Of a stretch of 15,478 nt of DNA, positions 53 to 15,478 are shown piece after piece. The translations under genes were made by a program, and so were the position numbers. Numbering within the stretch: the stretch's first letter is position 1; every line of letters starts with the position of its first letter. A model generated the notes under the pieces. That model was not told where the DNA came from and did not search any database. It was given only the letters and a program-made list of their open reading frames with translations. The stretch comes from Phycisphaerales bacterium (GTDB lineage: Bacteria; Planctomycetota; Phycisphaerae; Phycisphaerales; UBA1924), in the NCBI GenBank assembly GCA_016764015.1, contig JAESSR010000050.1, forward strand, positions 1 through 15,478. Direction: 5' to 3'.

Positions 53-457
53 ATGCACATGCGTCAATCAGATCACGATCACGGCCCAGATACCGTACCC
101 GTCAAGATCATCCTTGAGAACCCCGAAGAACTCAACGAAGACGGGTCAGATACCGCGATCCATGAGCTGATGGCGGCCAAGGGCGAGCACCTGCTCGAAA
201 TCGCGATCGAACACGGGATCAACATCGAACACTCCTGTGGCGGCGTTTGTGCATGCTCAACCTGCCATATCTATATCGAAGAAGGTATGGATATGATCTC
301 GGAGGCGGAGGAAGAGGAAGAAGATCGCGTTGAGGAAGCACCGGGGCTCCAGATGAACTCTCGGCTCGCCTGCCAGTGCGATATCATCGGCGACGGCCCA
401 ATTGTCTTCCGTGTGCCCTCGTGGAACCGCAATGCGGTCAAAGAAGTGCCTCATTAG
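53..457 (+). CDS. ISC-type [2Fe-2S] ferredoxin
   Basis: Small electron carrier of the adrenodoxin/ISC ferredoxin type, expected in the cytoplasm as electron donor in iron-sulfur cluster assembly or to an oxygenase. The cluster ligands are visible as C62-x5-C68-x2-C71-x35-C107, inside SCGGVCACSTC and LACQC; the extra C66 and C109 are also common in this family. An acidic stretch (residues 83-92, EAEEEEEDRV) follows the ligand loop, as in ferredoxins that dock on basic partners. The start at 53 has a strong Shine-Dalgarno (GAGGAG at 38-43); an ATG two codons later (59) is possible. The N-terminus is longer than usual and has a small His/Asp cluster (HDHGPD). No ISC genes are adjacent, so the physiological partner is unknown. 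Confidence 0.93.
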   Translation: MHMRQSDHDHGPDTVPVKIILENPEELNEDGSDTAIHELMAAKGEHLLEIAIEHGINIEHSCGGVCACSTCHIYIEEGMDMISEAEEEEEDRVEEAPGLQMNSRLACQCDIIGDGPIVFRVPSWNRNAVKEVPH

Positions 458-491
458 TGCGATTGCTGTGCCAAGGCGATATCCTTATGGC

Positions 492-2054
492 ATGAATCGC
501 ACCCCGAGCATTGTTCACATCTTGGTCACGATCGCATTGGCAGCGTCGTCATCGTTGTGCGCTGGCGGGCCACTCAAGGCAAGGACCTCGCCTACGGGTG
601 ATGTTGTGGAATCGGTCTGGGTCTCGATGCGGATCAAGGTGCCCACGCCAGATGCGATGGGCGATGCCAAAGGGTTCGGATTGGTGCTGATCGATCCTGA
701 TCGTGGATCGTTGACTGATGATTTTCTATGGGATGAGCCAAACACCGATCATTCAATTGCGATCGGGTTTGATGTCCATAACCCTGTTCCAAATAAGGAT
801 GCCGATGAGAATGATCGGGTGATGGGATGGTTCGATGCGATGGGCAACTGGTACGATCGCCCGCAGCGCGAAGTTTCAGTTCATGCGAATGGTCGCGAAC
901 GAATCAATGTGCTCTCCGATGTCGAGTTCCGTACCGGCGAGTGGATGGATGTCATGATCCAGCTCCGCTACATCCTCGGCGGGGCGCATGTGATGGTGAT
1001 GATCGACGGGCAGGTTGTGATTGACGATGATCTCTGGAATGTCAAACCAATGCGGCTCCATGCAATGGTCGGAGTTGAAGGCGACGGGATCGAGATTGAA
1101 GAATTGACGATAGTTCATTCGACGATGCTCGATGAGCCAATGCCCGAACCTGTGCGTGTTGAGGTGTTCACTGAAGAGTTCTTAGCCAACGCCAAGTGGC
1201 TCAGATCGGATGTTGATTTTTCGACGATTCCTGAATCTGTTGGGCGAGTGATCGCAACGATGACGATCTCGGAACCTGAGGTTGGGTACGACCATTGGGA
1301 CAAGAAGGGCACGATCGGGCTTACGGTTCCGGATGTTGGCGAAGAGGCTGGCGAGCGGTTTGAGGTGTTCCGGTTCATTACGCCTTTCCGTCGTGGGTGG
1401 ACTTGGTATATGGATGTGACGGATTTGCTGCCTTTGTTTGTCGATCAGCGTCAGTTCGATGCCCACATTGGGACCTATATGAAGGGTTGGGATGTGTCGT
1501 TCGCGTTGGATTTCTATCCGGGTGTTCCAGATCGCACGCCGATCTCGGTGGTGAATCTATGGAATGGCAATGCGGATATCGGTGATCCAGATAAGCCGGT
1601 CGCGGAGTTTTACGAGGCTCGCGAGATCGAGGTTCCCGAAGGTACCACACACGCACGGGTGCGCGCGACGGTGACTGGGCACGGGATGTTCCCCAACAGC
1701 AAGAACGCCGGCGAGTTCATGCCCATCTGGCGGACGCTGACGATCAGATCAGAAGCGAACGAGGGCGATGTGCTTGAGGGCGACTATGTCACCATGTCGG
1801 CGCGGGATTATCTTTGGAAGACCGATGTGTATTTGAACCCGTGTCGCCCGCAGGGTGGGACATGGAAGTTTGATCGCTCGGGCTGGGCGCCGGGCTCGAA
1901 GGTTGAGCCTTGGATTGTCGATGTTCAGCGCGAGTTTGTCTTTGGCGAAACAATAACTGTTGAGTATGTACTCGATGAATATCTCAATGAAGGGCGAGGC
2001 GAGACCTGGGCGCCTCACCATTGGACCGATGCGGTGATAGTTTTTTACAAGTAA
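492..2054 (+). CDS. Secreted PNGase F-like protein with N-terminal lectin-like domain
   Basis: Probable exported relative of peptide-N-glycosidase F, which cleaves N-glycans from asparagine. I chose ATG 492 because it gives a signal peptide (residues 1 to about 24) and a 520-residue product; the open frame extends upstream to 402, inside the ferredoxin gene, but that start would put about 30 polar residues before the signal. Residues about 40-210 look like an all-beta lectin/LamG-type domain. Residues about 222-350 and 375-520 match the two PNGase F domains from memory: YDHWD aligns with CDEWD (catalytic Asp60 corresponds to D270), RFITPF with RFITPY, AGEF with CAEW (Glu206 corresponds to E408), and DRSGWAPG with DRAGWCPG. 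The third active-site acid, Glu118, has no obvious counterpart, and the PNGase F cysteines are mostly replaced. Family confidence is good; glycosidase activity is inferred. Confidence 0.75.
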   Translation: MNRTPSIVHILVTIALAASSSLCAGGPLKARTSPTGDVVESVWVSMRIKVPTPDAMGDAKGFGLVLIDPDRGSLTDDFLWDEPNTDHSIAIGFDVHNPVPNKDADENDRVMGWFDAMGNWYDRPQREVSVHANGRERINVLSDVEFRTGEWMDVMIQLRYILGGAHVMVMIDGQVVIDDDLWNVKPMRLHAMVGVEGDGIEIEELTIVHSTMLDEPMPEPVRVEVFTEEFLANAKWLRSDVDFSTIPESVGRVIATMTISEPEVGYDHWDKKGTIGLTVPDVGEEAGERFEVFRFITPFRRGWTWYMDVTDLLPLFVDQRQFDAHIGTYMKGWDVSFALDFYPGVPDRTPISVVNLWNGNADIGDPDKPVAEFYEAREIEVPEGTTHARVRATVTGHGMFPNSKNAGEFMPIWRTLTIRSEANEGDVLEGDYVTMSARDYLWKTDVYLNPCRPQGGTWKFDRSGWAPGSKVEPWIVDVQREFVFGETITVEYVLDEYLNEGRGETWAPHHWTDAVIVFYK

Positions 2055-10418: not shown

Positions 10419-10985
10419 TCAGTACCGCAACTGGACTGTTCGCACATGGCGGCCGTCTTTGAGGAGGACGGCGTAGAAGTGGTCGAAGCTGGTTTCTTCG
10501 AGATCGGGCAGGGATGGACCGCCCAGAGCAGCGATGATTGTGGGCACGGTGTTGGAGTGGGCGATGATGAGGGTGGCGTTTGCAGAGTTCGATGCTCGGA
10601 TGCTTGTCGCCAGACCGGTCGCGTCGAATGGGGGATAGATGGTTGATGTGATGCCGGCAGCGGCAGCTGATGGGGCAGCGGTCTGGATCGATCGGTTGGT
10701 GTTGGTGACATAGATCGCGTTGAGCTGTTCGTCTTGGATCATGTTGGCGAGTAGGATCGCGCGGGCTTGGCCTTGGGCGTTGAGACTCGGGTTGCTGCCA
10801 GAGTTTGGATCGGTGTCGGCGTGTCTGAGTACAAAGACGATTTGGTTTTCCGCCAGCCCGATCTGTGCTGGTGCTGGTGCTTGGGCCGTCTTGGCGGTTG
10901 GCTGGGCAAAGCCAAAGGCCGCGATGAGCGTGATGGCGAGCGAAACAATTAATGTGATCACTGTGATTGATGTCGTGGTTTTCAT
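10419..10985 (-). CDS. Exported histidine phosphatase superfamily protein
   Basis: Phosphatase of the phosphoglycerate-mutase-like superfamily, 188 residues. It has an N-terminal signal peptide (about 1-27, ending GFA before QPT), so it acts in the periplasm or at the envelope. The catalytic motif is RHADT (54-58, phospho-accepting H55), with the second Arg at R98 (NTNRSIQT) and the second His at H143 (IIAHSNT). AGGA stands 9 nt before the ATG. It lies 34 nt downstream of the flavin oxidoreductase gene on the same strand, so it is probably the last gene of the cobalamin-riboswitch operon. CobC (alpha-ribazole phosphatase) is in this superfamily, but the signal peptide argues against a cytoplasmic CobC; the substrate is unknown. 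Confidence 0.88.
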   Translation of the reverse strand: MKTTTSITVITLIVSLAITLIAAFGFAQPTAKTAQAPAPAQIGLAENQIVFVLRHADTDPNSGSNPSLNAQGQARAILLANMIQDEQLNAIYVTNTNRSIQTAAPSAAAAGITSTIYPPFDATGLATSIRASNSANATLIIAHSNTVPTIIAALGGPSLPDLEETSFDHFYAVLLKDGRHVRTVQLRY

Positions 10986-10996
10986 TGTGGGAATCC

Positions 10997-11022
10997 TGTG
11001 CTGTGATTATGTGCTGTGATTA
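10997..11022. repeat. 13-bp perfect tandem duplication
   Basis: TGTGCTGTGATTA occurs twice in tandem (10997-11009 and 11010-11022). The second copy includes the stop codon of the flavin oxidoreductase gene (TTA at 11020-11022 on the plus strand); the first copy lengthens the spacer to the phosphatase gene. Confidence 0.97.
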
Positions 11023-11751
11023 GTGGAGGTCTGCGCCCTTTGATTCAAAGTAGGCTCCAAGCCCTTCGCGGGCTGCGTAGCTGAACTTCTTTGCGATGGC
11101 CTGCGACCATGTCGCCGGCTTGGCGCCACGATCGACGAGGTATTGCTCGTACACCTTATCATACCGATCGATGCTGGCGTTGGTTTCATCATCGGACGGG
11201 TATTGGTTTTCATACAGCACCGAATCTGGCGCAAGGCGCGGGCGATGTGTTGGTGATTCATCGGGGACGCCGACACATAAACCATAGAACGGCATCACAC
11301 CCTTGGGCAAGCCAAGAAGCTTGTCGACCGCAGGCAGGTCATTGCGAAGCCCGCCGATGTAGCAGGTTCCATAGCCGAGCGATTCGAATGCGAGGACGAA
11401 GTTCTGGGCGAAGAGTGATGCGTCGATTGATGCAACGAGGAACGCTTCGAGTCCGGTTTCGTAGGGCTTGTTGGCGCGTTCGAGGATGAGCATATGTTTT
11501 CGAAGGTCGCCGCAGATGATGAAGAAGGCTGCGCAGTCGTGAACCTTTTGTTGAGGCCCGCAGAGATTGGCGATTTTTTGTCGCTTGTCACCATCGGTGA
11601 TGTGGAGTACGCAGTAGGGCTGGACAGACGACGAGGTTGCGGCTGCTTGGCCTGCGAGCATCGCTTCGTCAATATGAGCTTGTGGGATCGGATCGTTGGT
11701 GTATGTCCTGATCGATCGATGTGCCCGCATGGTGTTGATGGTTTCATTCAT
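11020..11751 (-). CDS. NfsA/FRP-type NAD(P)H-dependent flavin oxidoreductase (nitroreductase family)
   Basis: FMN-dependent oxidoreductase that reduces nitro compounds, quinones or free flavin with NAD(P)H. The N-terminal motif HRSIRTYTNDPI (residues 11-22), the FMN-binding AGQAAATSSSVQPY, and later FESLGYGTCYIGG and CVGVPDE are typical of the NfsA/FRP branch, and the 243-residue length from ATG 11751 fits. I prefer ATG 11751 to a TTG at 11772: the ATG lies inside the end of the upstream [2Fe-2S] gene (8-nt overlap, ATGAATGA), which favours translational coupling, and neither start has a good Shine-Dalgarno. BluB, the enzyme making the B12 lower ligand, is in the wider superfamily, but this sequence does not look like BluB. 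A flavin reductase could reduce corrinoids through FMNH2; that is inference. Confidence 0.9.
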   Translation of the reverse strand: MNETINTMRAHRSIRTYTNDPIPQAHIDEAMLAGQAAATSSSVQPYCVLHITDGDKRQKIANLCGPQQKVHDCAAFFIICGDLRKHMLILERANKPYETGLEAFLVASIDASLFAQNFVLAFESLGYGTCYIGGLRNDLPAVDKLLGLPKGVMPFYGLCVGVPDESPTHRPRLAPDSVLYENQYPSDDETNASIDRYDKVYEQYLVDRGAKPATWSQAIAKKFSYAAREGLGAYFESKGADLH

Positions 11752-11980
11752 GCCCGAAGGATAGGGGGACAAACTGGGTTTGGCCGGTGCGGATCATTTG
11801 GCGGATGTAGGGTTCACACAAGGCACAGCCAGTTGTGCATTTGGTTTTTGTGCGGAGATGATCGAGGATGGTATGTTCATCATCAACACCAGATTGCCGC
11901 AGACGGTCGATGAGTGGAAGCATGTCTTTGAACATGACGAAGTGACACACGCATCGATCAACCCTGTTCGCTGGCATCAT
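11744..11980 (-). CDS. Small BFD-like [2Fe-2S]-binding protein
   Basis: A 78-residue gene hidden inside a longer frame that mostly shadows the prepilin gene. It encodes a bacterioferritin-associated-ferredoxin-like domain: RCVCHF (C10, C12) and TTGCALCEPYI (C52, C55; an extra C48 precedes) are the expected C-x-C ... C-x2-C cluster ligands, separated by a helical stretch. The tail IRTGQTQF is also usual for this group. The start is ATG at 11980 or the adjacent ATG at 11977, with GGTGG just upstream; the first overlaps the upstream stop by 4 nt (ATGA). Its end overlaps the flavin oxidoreductase by 8 nt. The pairing suggests an electron carrier for that enzyme, although BFD domains also act in iron release or cluster delivery. 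Confidence 0.82.
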   Translation of the reverse strand: MMPANRVDRCVCHFVMFKDMLPLIDRLRQSGVDDEHTILDHLRTKTKCTTGCALCEPYIRQMIRTGQTQFVPLSFGHE

Positions 11981-12795
11981 TTCCACCGCTCTGGGCTTTG
12001 GACATAGTTTGGATCGTTGGTTTTCGAGATTGAACCGATTCCATGTTTGGCAATTGACTTCGCTTCTGGATCGTGTTTTTCTTTGGTCACCGAGCCGTCG
12101 GCCCGGGCGGTGATGGCTTGGCCAAACCCTTCGCCCTTTGGTTTGCCGTGCCGAAAGGCGGTGGTGGGCGAGAAGTTTTCTCGCCAGCCCAAGCCAGGCG
12201 TGAAGAGTTTGGGCGGGTCGAGCAGTGCAGAGTTGGAGGGTTGGCCGCTGAACAATGCGATGAGTGTGTCGGCAAACACAAGCTGCGAAGATGGTCGATG
12301 CAGGCTCGCAACGCGAATCGTTCGTTGGTTGTAGAGCGAAAAGTAGCCTGTGGTGGACGGGGCTAATCCATACGCGTTGTAGCCGTAGGTCGAGGTGAAT
12401 CCGTTGGTCGAACCTTGGGTGTGATATGAATCGGTTGGCTGGTTTGGGCATTCAAAGACAGAAGTGTCGCCGGGCGATGCACTGAGGTATGGGGTGAGTG
12501 TTCCTGCGTTGTGATCGAGTGTTTGATTCGCAATGTTTTCGGAGCCGTACCAATATTGGCGAGTGATGCCCGAGGCTCGCAGGTGAGGCATCGCGTAGCC
12601 TCGGTAGTCGTCGGTGTACATGATCCAAGCGGTGACGAGTTGGCGTTGGTTTGAGGCACAGATCGTTGCTTGTGCAGATTGCTTCGCGCTGCTTAGCGAT
12701 GGGAGCAAGATGCCTATGAGCAGCGCAATGATGGCGATGACGACTAAGAGTTCGATGAGTGTGAAGGCCCGGGATGGATCGCGTGTTTGGGTCAT
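11977..12795 (-). CDS. Prepilin-type (pseudopilin) secreted protein
   Basis: A type IV pilin-like protein of 272 residues, of the abundant planctomycete family with a prepilin N-terminal cleavage/methylation motif. The leader is 10 residues (MTQTRDPSRA), and cleavage before F11 leaves FTLIELLVVIAIIALLIGILLP; E15 is the conserved Glu5. Ala rather than Gly stands before the cut, as seen in related planctomycete proteins. The C-terminal half carries FRHGKP...ARADGSVTKEK, similar to the H-X9-DG motif of these families. The ATG overlaps the stop of the upstream propeller gene by 4 nt (ATGA), and its own stop overlaps the start of the [2Fe-2S] gene. A prepilin peptidase elsewhere in the genome would be needed. 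The role could be assembly of a surface filament or presentation of the operon's exported proteins. Confidence 0.9.
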   Translation of the reverse strand: MTQTRDPSRAFTLIELLVVIAIIALLIGILLPSLSSAKQSAQATICASNQRQLVTAWIMYTDDYRGYAMPHLRASGITRQYWYGSENIANQTLDHNAGTLTPYLSASPGDTSVFECPNQPTDSYHTQGSTNGFTSTYGYNAYGLAPSTTGYFSLYNQRTIRVASLHRPSSQLVFADTLIALFSGQPSNSALLDPPKLFTPGLGWRENFSPTTAFRHGKPKGEGFGQAITARADGSVTKEKHDPEAKSIAKHGIGSISKTNDPNYVQSPERWK

Positions 12796-14351
12796 CTATG
12801 GAGTTGGTCAATGAGTTGGTCGATGGTGATTTGACCCTTTGTATATCGGCTCATAAGTTGTAAAGGCGTGAGTGGGGTCGGTGCGAAGGCGTGGATGCCG
12901 TTGGCTCCGGGGGTATAGATCCATGAGCCGAGCATCGCGGGGGTTGAGCCGGTGCCTGCGTATTGCTCGACGATGAAGTTGGGGTCGGTTGGGAGCTTGG
13001 TGAGATCAATCAACGCGATATCAGTGTTGTGGCTGATGAAATTAGTGATGGTTGTCTCGGGGAGCGTGCCGACGAGAAGCATTGGGGTGTTGTCGAGTAT
13101 GAATGCGATGGGTTGGTGTGTCCAGCCGCCCAGCGAGAGGAATGATTCGCCGCGATCCCAGTAGCCGTTGGTGTTTGCGTCGTCGAGTGTATCGGTTGCC
13201 GAATCCCAAAGTACACTCGCCGAGTTATCATTTGTTTCATCGATGTATTGAATGCTTGGGAGCGAGCCAAAGAACGGGAGTGCATCGGTGGTGCTGATCG
13301 GAACACCGCCGGAGACGATGACATCTCCCGAGGGTAAAACGATCGGGGTTGCGTCGGTGCGGTTGGTTGGGACGGACCAGGCGAGTTGCCCGGTGTGCTT
13401 GTTCACCTTGACGGTGTTGGAGTTGAACTGAAGCCCTGAGAAGTTATACGACGAGGCATAGACATGGCCTTTGGCGATTGAGACGCCTGAGAAAAAACCA
13501 GCGTTGATGGTGTTGGTGAATGTCCAAGTCGGCGATGGAGCTGTTATTGCAGCTGCATCGAAGGCATGGATCAATCCTGCTTGCGAACTCGATCCTGATG
13601 CCGTCGCAACAAAGACTATGCCATCGGCGTACGCTGGGGTATTGCCAGAGCTGTCGCCACTGAGCGAAGCCTGCCAAACGATCTCGCCGGGCTGGAATGG
13701 ATTTTGGGTTAGGTGAAATGGATCGGTATTGATGCAAGTGAGCTTTGAGGCGTTGCCGCCGCCGAAGGAGTAGTTGGTGATGAATGCGCGATCGTTGTGC
13801 CGGAGATCGGAAGTGATCACCGGCGAAGCATTCACAACGATGCCGTTGATCGGGGTGGACCAGTTTTGTGCGCCGGTTGTCGTGTCAATCGCGATGAGCT
13901 GATTACTGATGGCGATGATGATCTGTTGGTGTTGGATATCAATCGCAGGCGTCGACCAAGAATCAAGAATCGCAGCCGGGATCGGTGTTGCCCATATGAA
14001 GCTTCCTGTGAAGCGGTTATACGCAACAGCAAAGCTCGATCCAGGTTGGGCAGGGTTGGTCGCGAGAGTGTAGACCTGCGATCGATCAACAACGAGCCCG
14101 GTTTGAGCGATGGGGATATAGGTCGTCGTGCCATCGCCCAATGCGATCCAGGTCGGCGATGCGAGTGTTGGAATGTTAGGCGATAGACGAGCGGTGCTTT
14201 GTCGGCGGGTGTTGCCGCCGAAGTGTGACCAGATGGAAGCATCATCAATAACCTCTGGCTGCTTCTGATTCACCGATGGGAATGGGGTGCTTTGTGCGCA
14301 CAAGCCTGTACATGTTGCGGCGAGTAGAAGAATCTGGAGTTTGTGAATCAT
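12792..14351 (-). CDS. Secreted PQQ-like beta-propeller protein with a calcium-type loop
   Basis: Exported protein of 519 residues. ATG 14351 gives a signal peptide (about 1-19, near GLCA before QST); a TTG 27 nt upstream adds nine residues before it and is unlikely. Repeated blades of the PQQ/YVTN type are visible: FAVAYNRFTGSFIW (107-120), QLIAIDTTTGAQNW (151-164), LIHAFDAAAITAPSPTW (260-276) and NTVKVNKHTGQLAW (312-325), with the final IHAFAP near 490. A loop DANTNGYWDRGE (391-402) fits an EF-hand or dockerin-like calcium site (D-x-N-x-N-G-x-x-D-x-x-E). No PQQ dehydrogenase active site was noticed, so a binding role is more likely than catalysis. It lies 100 nt below the PEP-CTERM gene and overlaps the prepilin gene. 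A surface beta-propeller that binds B12 is known in Bacteroides (BtuG), but no sequence match is claimed. Confidence 0.88.
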   Translation of the reverse strand: MIHKLQILLLAATCTGLCAQSTPFPSVNQKQPEVIDDASIWSHFGGNTRRQSTARLSPNIPTLASPTWIALGDGTTTYIPIAQTGLVVDRSQVYTLATNPAQPGSSFAVAYNRFTGSFIWATPIPAAILDSWSTPAIDIQHQQIIIAISNQLIAIDTTTGAQNWSTPINGIVVNASPVITSDLRHNDRAFITNYSFGGGNASKLTCINTDPFHLTQNPFQPGEIVWQASLSGDSSGNTPAYADGIVFVATASGSSSQAGLIHAFDAAAITAPSPTWTFTNTINAGFFSGVSIAKGHVYASSYNFSGLQFNSNTVKVNKHTGQLAWSVPTNRTDATPIVLPSGDVIVSGGVPISTTDALPFFGSLPSIQYIDETNDNSASVLWDSATDTLDDANTNGYWDRGESFLSLGGWTHQPIAFILDNTPMLLVGTLPETTITNFISHNTDIALIDLTKLPTDPNFIVEQYAGTGSTPAMLGSWIYTPGANGIHAFAPTPLTPLQLMSRYTKGQITIDQLIDQLHR

Positions 14352-14382
14352 GGGGCGTCCAATCAAAGGCGGAAACAATCTG

Positions 14383-14398
14383 CCCGGGTTTCCCCGAG
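14383..14398 (-). other. Stem-loop with GAAA tetraloop before the propeller gene
   Basis: On the minus strand, CTCGGG GAAA CCCGGG forms a 6-bp stem (one G-U pair) closed by a GNRA tetraloop, 32 nt before the propeller start and 54 nt after the PEP-CTERM stop. There is no U-run after it, so it may be a processing or mRNA-stability element rather than a terminator. Confidence 0.5.
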
Positions 14399-14451
14399 CA
14401 AACTGTCATCTCTCTCCGCTCCCAAAGGGGTGGGAACGGGAATGAAAATCG

Positions 14452-15276
14452 TTACGCTCGGCGTCTGCGTGCCGCAGCCAAAGCGCCAATGCTCAAGAGC
14501 ATGAATGCGCCCGGTGCAGGAACCACCGCGACCGCATCAATCTCAAAGGCTTCGCCCGATTCGTTGAGGAATCGAACATAGTTGGCCGAGTTGAGTCCGG
14601 TCGAGGAGATATCGATGCCAACGCCACCCCCCGAGCCGTTGTAGAGATCGATGATCTGTGAGAAGGAAAGGTTGGCTAAATCTGAGAGCATCAACGATGG
14701 GTCCATTGCTTGGGTGAAGTCTGTTTCGATCGAGCCGATGCTGCCCGGCGTCGGAAGATCGAAATCGGAGTACCCAAGCGTTGGGAACAGATCAAGCGTG
14801 GTGATCGCAGCGGTGAACCAGTTGGTGCCGTCGTTGGATACCTGGATGGTTGCTTCGCCGCCAGCACCAAAGATGAACGGGTTGGAGCCGATGACGCCGG
14901 TACCATCGTTGGATGGGTCGGCGTCGAACCATGAGGTGTCGCTGAACCCGGCGTTAGAGAACACGATGAAGTCGATGCCATACGCGTGTGATGCATCGTT
15001 GGTGATGGCGGTGTCGAACCGGAGATCAAGATGTCCGCCACTACCGATCGAAACAAGTTCATCGGTTCCAAAGGCCGGGTTGAATGGGGTGACGCCGCCG
15101 GGGAAGATGCCTTCGCCGGTGAATCGTTCGGCAGCACCAAGCGCGGTGTTTGCGTCGTTGTAACCGATCGCCGAGTTTGATCCCGCGTCATAGGACAACA
15201 CGCTCGATGCGTATGGATTGGCGAGGGTGAGGGATGTGGTGACAGCGATGGCTGACGATGTGATGATTGCACGCAT
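14452..15276 (-). CDS. PEP-CTERM-like surface-sorted protein, first gene after the B12 riboswitch
   Basis: Exported protein of 274 residues. The signal peptide spans about residues 1-20 (ending near TLANP), and the C-terminus VPAPGA + hydrophobic + ARRRRA is a PEP-CTERM-type sorting tag that an exosortase would process. The mature part is beta-rich, with HLDLRFDTAI, YGIDFIVFSNAGF and ATIQVSNDGTNWF, a pattern I recall from secreted proteins with a discoidin-like fold. ATG 15276 is preceded by a GA-rich Shine-Dalgarno (GGAAAGAGAG); the open frame continues upstream into the riboswitch leader, but that part is non-coding in character. The position directly below a cobalamin riboswitch implies repression by B12 and a role in B12/corrinoid acquisition at the surface. 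Function is inferred from context only. Confidence 0.87.
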   Translation of the reverse strand: MRAIITSSAIAVTTSLTLANPYASSVLSYDAGSNSAIGYNDANTALGAAERFTGEGIFPGGVTPFNPAFGTDELVSIGSGGHLDLRFDTAITNDASHAYGIDFIVFSNAGFSDTSWFDADPSNDGTGVIGSNPFIFGAGGEATIQVSNDGTNWFTAAITTLDLFPTLGYSDFDLPTPGSIGSIETDFTQAMDPSLMLSDLANLSFSQIIDLYNGSGGGVGIDISSTGLNSANYVRFLNESGEAFEIDAVAVVPAPGAFMLLSIGALAAARRRRA

Positions 15277-15291
15277 GTGCTTCTCTCTTTC

Positions 15292-15310
15292 CGATGCGTT
15301 CGCGGCATCG
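15292..15310 (-). promoter_or_regulatory. Leader hairpin next to the ribosome binding site
   Basis: CGATGC / GCATCG form a perfect 6-bp stem with a 7-nt loop. On the minus strand its 3' side runs directly into the GGAAAGAGAG ribosome binding region of the PEP-CTERM gene, so pairing here could affect translation. This is a structure seen by eye; its role is inferred. Confidence 0.5.
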
Positions 15311-15311
15311 T

Positions 15312-15336
15312 GAATCCTGTGTTTGCACACAGACTC
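15312..15336 (-). promoter_or_regulatory. Leader hairpin with GCAA tetraloop
   Basis: On the minus strand GAGTCTGTGT pairs with ACACAG-(G)-ATTC around a GCAA tetraloop: ten pairs with one G-U and one bulged G. It lies 35 nt before the PEP-CTERM start. There is no following U-run, so it is not a standard terminator. Confidence 0.5.
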
Positions 15337-15377
15337 CCCGGATGAACAAATCATCGGCAACGCGGGTTCAAAGAGAT

Positions 15378-15420
15378 GGTGGGGAGGGTTCGCTTGGGAA
15401 GGAGGGCGAACAAGTCCACC
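15378..15420 (-). promoter_or_regulatory. Possible riboswitch expression-platform hairpin
   Basis: Lower stem GGTGG/CCACC, an internal loop, and upper stem GTTCGC/GCGAAC around a 12-nt loop containing CCTCCTT, the same sequence as the 16S rRNA anti-Shine-Dalgarno. It lies 30-odd nt below the B12-box. The bases after it (ATCTCTTTG on the minus strand) are only modestly U-rich, so either weak termination or loop pairing with a purine-rich partner is possible. Confidence 0.45.
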
Positions 15421-15449
15421 AACCCCAATCGCGAGGGCCGACATACATG

Positions 15450-15478
15450 TTCGAGGCAGGTCTTCCGGCTCTGGGTTC
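15450..15478 (-). promoter_or_regulatory. Cobalamin riboswitch, 3' end only (cut by window edge)
   Basis: On the minus strand, 15470-15455 read AGCCGGAAGACCTGCC, the highly conserved B12-box that closes the cobalamin riboswitch aptamer, preceded by GAACCCAG as usual for this element. The rest of the aptamer lies beyond the window. The orientation points to the PEP-CTERM gene and the minus-strand genes below it, about 175 nt upstream of the first start. Known switches of this class turn expression off when adenosylcobalamin or another corrinoid binds. Confidence 0.85.

What the first reader, a model, noticed from the sequence alone, without database searches (positions are those of the whole stretch)
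10419..15478. A cobalamin-riboswitch operon of envelope and redox proteins, without classical B12 transport genes in view
Seen: a B12-box on the minus strand at 15455-15470 and, below it on the same strand, genes for a PEP-CTERM protein, beta-propeller, prepilin-like protein, BFD-type [2Fe-2S] protein, flavin oxidoreductase and exported histidine phosphatase, with overlaps of 4, 4 and 8 nt and a 34-nt gap. Known: cobalamin riboswitches normally control B12 synthesis or uptake, and a surface beta-propeller (BtuG) captures B12 in Bacteroides. Inferred: this is a planctomycete corrinoid capture and reduction system built from exosortase-sorted and pilin-like surface proteins; no TonB-type transporter or ABC transporter is in this window.
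Basis: partly seen in the sequence, partly recalled or inferred. Interest (0 to 1): 0.82.

Follow-up and report, generated by a model that had tools for sequence, protein, structure and literature searches.

The report
Planctomycete vitamin B12 surface-capture operon
Planctomycete bacteria that use vitamin B12 but seem unable to make it carry a B12-sensing RNA switch in front of genes for a B12-binding-type surface protein, a propeller protein and a pilus-like protein, and in many of them the usual outer-membrane B12 gate was not found, so this may be how they catch the vitamin.

The parts
15438..15478 (-). 3' end of a cobalamin riboswitch aptamer (B12-box at 15455-15470); the rest lies beyond the window
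   Evidence: sequence; full RF00174 match (79.6 bits) in G001:C42:25016-25242, whose last 41 nt are window 15438-15478
15277..15437 (-). leader between aptamer and first start codon (presumed expression platform), strongly structured
   Evidence: 15340-15455 folds at -40.6 kcal/mol, z -4.6; mode of control not determined
14452..15276 (-). gene 1 (P0001, 274 aa): exported BtuH-type beta-sandwich protein with PEP-CTERM-like tail
14352..14451 (-). intercistronic region with two hairpins (about 14409-14445 and 14374-14407), no T-run after them
   Evidence: z -5.1; z below -2 in the 100 nt after gene 1 in 19 of 34 loci (G001 included)
12792..14351 (-). gene 2 (P0002, 519 aa): exported PQQ_2-type beta-propeller
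   Evidence: PF13360, 50.4 bits; 34 of 38 strong homologues lie within 6.5 kb of the riboswitch
11977..12795 (-). gene 3 (P0003, 272 aa): type IV prepilin-like protein, DUF1559-like
11744..11980 (-). gene 4 (P0004, 78 aa): BFD-like [2Fe-2S] protein (below Pfam's cut-off)
11020..11751 (-). gene 5 (P0005, 243 aa): NfsA-like nitroreductase / flavin oxidoreductase; seen only around the window's genus
   Evidence: (212 bits, cut-off 223)
10419..10985 (-). gene 6 (P0006, 188 aa): exported histidine phosphatase; seen only in the window's genus

Best explanation
This is a B12-acquisition operon. When cell B12 is low, the cobalamin riboswitch lets the operon be expressed. Gene 1 makes a BtuH-type surface protein that binds corrinoids, and the adjacent propeller acts as its partner, as BtuG and BtuH do in Bacteroides. 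The prepilin-like protein is a dedicated part of the same apparatus. Captured corrinoid reaches the periplasm and enters the cell through a BtuF/BtuC-type transporter encoded elsewhere, beside metH in this genus. Shown here: the riboswitch, the order-wide cassette, the BtuH relationship, B12 use, and absence of one corrin-ring marker. Inferred: ligand binding by the window's protein, surface anchoring, the propeller-BtuH partnership, the prepilin's role and the outer-membrane route. The redox genes are optional additions of unknown task.
Confidence: 0.82

Rival explanations
1. Conventional route: the surface proteins only concentrate B12 and hand it to a TonB-dependent BtuB-type receptor encoded elsewhere, as in Bacteroides; the prepilin is an accessory.
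For: 43 of 101 genomes have a Plug or receptor-barrel match. In G073, G086 and G095 a receptor gene follows a cobalamin riboswitch directly. BtuH and BtuG are thought to feed BtuB in Bacteroides (PMC10404256, passages).
Against: 58 of 101 genomes, and 46 of the 81 that are at least 90% complete and at most 5% contaminated, show neither domain; in the window's genus 13 of 21, ten of them of that quality. Of the 54 receptor-free genomes with a riboswitch, 51 have the BtuH-type core and 47 the prepilin head at it. G001's own barrel hits are on a 42.5% GC contig (its other stretches viewed 53-55%) and at a contig end, so perhaps foreign or chimeric.
Confidence: 0.35
2. The prepilin is a minor pseudopilin of a type II secretion or surface-assembly system that exports or anchors the capture proteins, and takes no part in moving B12.
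For: N-terminal methylation motif and GspG-like N-terminus; many similar prepilins per genome; the nine structural matches reported are all type IV pilins.
Against: One specific prepilin lineage is tied to the B12 riboswitch while its paralogues mostly are not, and its head is conserved apart from the common helix.
Confidence: 0.3
3. One reading: capture coupled to corrinoid reduction by the BFD protein and flavin oxidoreductase.
For: Both genes overlap their neighbours in the operon; the BFD gene is at 41 of 92 long loci; the nitroreductase is at 10 of the genus's 19 riboswitch loci, some of which are cut short.
Against: Among the fetched loci the nitroreductase was found only around the window's genus; it scores as an NfsA-like nitroreductase just under its cut-off and poorly as BluB.
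Confidence: 0.2
4. The riboswitch controls envelope genes unrelated to B12, such as adhesion or biofilm proteins.
For: PEP-CTERM, dockerin-type and pilin-like proteins are common envelope proteins in this phylum (recalled; for prepilins).
Against: BtuH homology, DUF4465 (a B12-binding family) in 3 of 10 proteins scanned, receptors in the same position in three relatives, and the out-of-order association.
Confidence: 0.06

Closest known systems
BtuH (BtuH2 of Bacteroides thetaiotaomicron, PDB 7BIZ; BtuH domain of BtuG1, PDB 8BLW)
   Same: Homologous domain by profile and predicted structure; exported; under a cobalamin riboswitch; beside a propeller (fused to it in BtuG1)
   Different: PEP-CTERM or dockerin-type tails instead of a lipoprotein anchor and Ig-like domains; the window-genus version lacks the Gln contact; no BtuB beside it
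BtuG (surface propeller lid of BtuB)
   Same: Exported propeller in a cobalamin-riboswitch operon with a BtuH domain
   Different: P0002 belongs to PQQ_2/BamB-type propellers by Pfam; a second propeller type replaces it in other relatives; no BtuB partner in the operon
BtuJ / DUF4465 B12-binding proteins (PMC13398666)
   Same: DUF4465 domains occur in this cassette in G074, G088 and G092
   Different: P0001 has no Pfam DUF4465 match
Type IV pilins and pseudopilins; DUF1559 proteins of planctomycetes
   Same: N-terminal methylation motif, long N-terminal helix, pilin-like predicted architecture
   Different: Control by a cobalamin riboswitch and a conserved head domain; two searches of the paper library showed, by title and abstract, no report of such a pilin under that switch
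BtuB-TonB and BtuFCD uptake
   Same: BtuC-type (FecCD) permease matches in 97 of 101 relatives, 88 of them at 1e-18 or better; beside metH in the four genomes of the window's genus that I viewed
   Different: Not in this operon; no TonB receptor detected in 58 of 101 relatives

Membership tests
Cobalamin riboswitch (RF00174) | Covariance-model match above gathering score, full length | tested here: met
   G001:C42:25016-25242, 79.6 bits vs 31.5, positions 1-189; window holds only the last 41 nt
Cobalamin riboswitch (RF00174) | B12-dependent repression of downstream genes | not testable with these tools
   needs expression data
BtuH-type B12-binding protein | Sequence homology to the BtuH domain | tested here: met
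   family profile A1 vs 8blw_B 4e-20 and 7biz_A 3e-16; A4 1.5e-34 and 2.1e-26; A3 to A4 hhalign 98.1%. P0001 or its genus alone gives no PDB hit
BtuH-type B12-binding protein | BtuH fold | tested here: met
   AF2 pLDDT 87.3, pTM 0.84; best Z to 7biz_B (12.7) and 8blw_B (11.8), next rows 11.0
BtuH-type B12-binding protein | Residues that contact B12 in BtuH2 | tested here: inconclusive
   Asn399 position kept (N108); Gln333 kept in the A4 sub-family but lost in the window's genus; the other contacts not aligned with confidence (residue numbers matched by my count)
BtuH-type B12-binding protein | Binds cobalamin with high affinity | not testable with these tools
   needs purified protein
BtuG | Homology to BtuG/YncE-type surface propellers | tested here: inconclusive
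   P0002 best matches PQQ_2/BamB; the other propeller type gives only a weak YncE hit, E 0.07; no propeller structure was predicted
BtuB / TonB-dependent uptake | Plug and receptor-barrel protein in the operon | tested here: not met
   none among the 15 window proteins scanned; none seen among ORFs upstream of the switch in G001 (read by eye)
Type IV prepilin | N-terminal cleavage/methylation motif | tested here: met
   PF07963 33 bits vs 21.2
Type IV prepilin | Pilin fold | tested here: inconclusive
PEP-CTERM sorted protein | PEP-CTERM tripartite tail | tested here: inconclusive
   PF07589 18.3 bits vs cut-off 20.7 for P0001; 16 of 45 family members match at E up to 1
PEP-CTERM sorted protein | Exosortase in the same genome | not tested
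   no search run for it
BFD-like [2Fe-2S] protein | Fer2_BFD above cut-off | tested here: not met
   15.9 bits vs 26; cysteine spacing looks right by eye
NfsA-type nitroreductase | Curated equivalog score | tested here: not met
   NF008033 212.4 bits vs cut-off 223; general Nitroreductase family met, 81 vs 23.5 bits

The most novel reading that the evidence does not exclude
An order of planctomycetes takes up vitamin B12 across the outer membrane without any TonB-dependent receptor: surface BtuH-type and propeller proteins catch it, and a dedicated, riboswitch-controlled type IV pilin-like protein carries or pulls it inward.
Probability: 0.25. Interest if true: 0.93.

Novelty: new variant of a known kind. 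Interest (0 to 1): 0.76.

Why it matters
B12 is a scarce vitamin that microbes exchange, and these bacteria appear to depend on others for it. The finding extends BtuH-type capture from Bacteroides to planctomycetes, with different surface anchors. It also points at a prepilin as a near-constant partner of the B12 switch. If the receptor-free genomes are truly receptor-free, a long-assumed rule (B12 is too large for ordinary porins and needs BtuB-TonB; recalled) has an exception that can be tested. Two papers cite earlier work suggesting that pili-like fibres from crater-like surface structures of planctomycetes take up large molecules (PMC9028447 and PMC6554331, passages); this cassette would be a defined case with a known ligand and a known switch.

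Tried and rejected
Rfam on the window alone gives no hit, because the aptamer is cut off. P0001 alone and its genus profile against the PDB find nothing credible; the link appears only with the wider family and with the structure model. NCBIfam gave no family match to P0001 above its cut-off; among the 45 members its best-supported names were sorting-tail families and a lipoprotein family of unknown function (LIC_13355, 20 of 45 members, best 1.4e-6). Foldseek on the prepilin model gave no match at 0.001; no solved relative of its head was found, and a missing match proves nothing. Foldseek on the P0001 model had one match below 0.001, 8blw_B at 6e-6, with low TM-scores. Of the 15 of 55 genomes whose best prepilin is not near a riboswitch, 5 have no riboswitch call at all; in the other 10 it is on another contig, some by contig breaks, some perhaps truly apart, and G004 seems to lack the prepilin at its locus. 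The terminator hypothesis for the gap between genes 1 and 2 was dropped: strong hairpins, but no T-run. Paper searches for cobalamin riboswitch with PEP-CTERM (1 paper, off topic in its passages), with pilin, planctomycetes with cobalamin and riboswitch, with vitamin B12, uptake, outer membrane and TonB, with btuB and riboswitch, and with BtuG (none) showed by title and start of abstract no report of this cassette; the library lacks most subscription journals and all bioRxiv preprints.
Full report
CHECK OF THE OBSERVATION. The B12-box AGCCGGAAGACCTGCC is at minus-strand 15455-15470. The window's own assembly is not held. The nearest genome, G001, holds window 10419-15478 at 100% (rounded) identity on contig C42. 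In G001 a full cobalamin aptamer scores 79.6 bits against a cut-off of 31.5, although 13 letters of it read N. The gene list, the overlaps of 4, 4 and 8 nt and the 34-nt gap are correct. Between genes 1 and 2 there are 100 nt with two hairpins (z -5.1). Similar structure follows gene 1 elsewhere: z below -2 in 19 of 34 loci, G001 included. Having no T-run, it looks more like a processing or stabilising element than a terminator (inference). Upstream of the switch in G001 the neighbouring genes, by my reading of their translations, are a divergent RecQ-type helicase, an FKBP-type protein, a glycosyltransferase and fatty-acid synthesis genes; I saw no B12 gene.

THE CASSETTE IN RELATIVES. RF00174 was found in 93 of 101 relatives (91 above the curated cut-off), once in 86 and twice in 7 of them; 3 of the 100 places are below the cut-off. 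I fetched all 100 loci and searched up to 8 kb downstream with profiles built from the loci themselves. In the 92 loci with more than 4 kb downstream, the BtuH-type core is at 80, the prepilin head at 84, the PQQ propeller at 31, a second PEP-CTERM propeller type at 25 and the BFD gene at 41. Propeller, BtuH-type gene and prepilin are all present at 56 of 92; BtuH-type gene and prepilin without a detected propeller at 22. These counts are partly in-sample. The same profiles gave 0, 0, 1, 0 and 0 hits in 20 control loci (metH and receptor neighbourhoods). In three genomes (G073, G086, G095) a TonB-dependent receptor follows a riboswitch.

TEST OUTSIDE THE ORDER. In 294 genomes spread over the phylum, 38 have an A1 match. 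I fetched 20 of the 26 that lie outside the order. In 17 of these 20 a cobalamin riboswitch above the gathering score lies upstream of the gene on the same strand. The 20 are not all independent: four belong to one family, f78. Of the three without a riboswitch, in L308 the match starts at the contig's beginning, and L309 and L310 are very long open frames. A prepilin of this type is beside it in 7 of 20, in one of them only by the whole-protein profile. In L317 the gene is divergent from a BtuF-like and a BtuC-like gene (read by eye).

PHYSIOLOGY. B12-binding domains occur in 101 of 101 genomes, and the corrin-ring marker CbiC in 0 of 101, while 7 of 14 control genomes ring. FecCD permeases match in 97 of 101, 88 of them at 1e-18 or better; the weaker ones may be other permeases. 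In the window's genus one lies beside metH (four genomes viewed: L204-L207; metH named from its B12 domain and by eye). Plug was found in 41 and the receptor barrel in 40 of 101 genomes; neither in 58, and in 46 of the 81 good-quality genomes neither. G001's own barrel hits are doubtful: one lies on a 42.5% GC contig, the other at a contig end. Draft genomes can miss genes, but ten receptor-free genomes of the window's genus are at least 90% complete.

MECHANISM. Low B12 releases the riboswitch (established for the class; recalled). The BtuH-type protein catches corrinoid at the surface (homology; binding not shown here). [quoted passage not shown] the hairpins after gene 1 might give the same excess (inference). 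The propeller probably receives or locks the ligand (analogy to BtuG1, where propeller and BtuH domain are one protein). The prepilin is the near-constant third part; whether it moves the ligand, anchors the others or helps export them is open. Inner-membrane import would use the BtuC-type permease (inference). The BFD protein, nitroreductase and phosphatase are accessory: within the fetched loci the nitroreductase is at 10 of the genus's 19 riboswitch loci plus one unplaced relative, and the phosphatase in 6 genomes of the genus. A corrinoid-reducing role is unproven.

PAPERS. PMC13398666: part 1 of 5 of the text and passages. PMC8941943: section 8 and passages. PMC10404256, PMC9028447, PMC6554331 and PMC12530212: passages. 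All other papers were seen only in search listings.

VERDICT. The unanswered and more interesting point is how B12 crosses the outer membrane in species without a detectable TonB receptor, and what the riboswitch-linked prepilin does there.

Noticed in passing
window 14352-14451: Two strong hairpins between gene 1 and gene 2 (a 15-bp stem with a GAAA loop at about 14374-14407); similar structure with changed sequence follows gene 1 in many relatives.
   Followed up: partly
L138 (G086) and L137 (G095): Two cobalamin riboswitches in tandem: one before a prepilin-like gene, the next before a TonB-dependent receptor, with an ExbD-like gene (by eye) further on.
   Followed up: partly
L113, L144 and L152 (G088, G092, G074): DUF4465 (BtuJ-type B12-binding) domains in the same cassette; in L152 the domain is the C-terminal part of a 718-aa protein.
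   Followed up: partly
L123, L162, L168, L100, L130, L163: Small PEP-CTERM-like proteins (about 220-345 aa) of two further families follow the riboswitch in some relatives, sometimes in place of the BtuH-type gene; of those scanned none has a Pfam name beyond PEP-CTERM. Possible additional corrinoid binders.
   Followed up: no
L204-L207: metH and a BtuC-type permease gene lie tail to tail in four genomes of the window's genus, away from this riboswitch.
   Followed up: partly
G001:C23 (L319): A 42.5% GC contig with a TonB receptor barrel, while other stretches of this genome viewed are 53-55% GC; perhaps contamination of this MAG.
   Followed up: partly
window 402-2051: A 550-aa frame with a peptide-N-glycosidase F C-terminal domain (38.8 bits, cut-off 25).
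   Followed up: no
L092 and L120: Here the cassette is followed by nucleotide-pyrophosphohydrolase-like and TrpA-like genes and a type III glutamine synthetase-like gene (names by eye, not tested).
   Followed up: no
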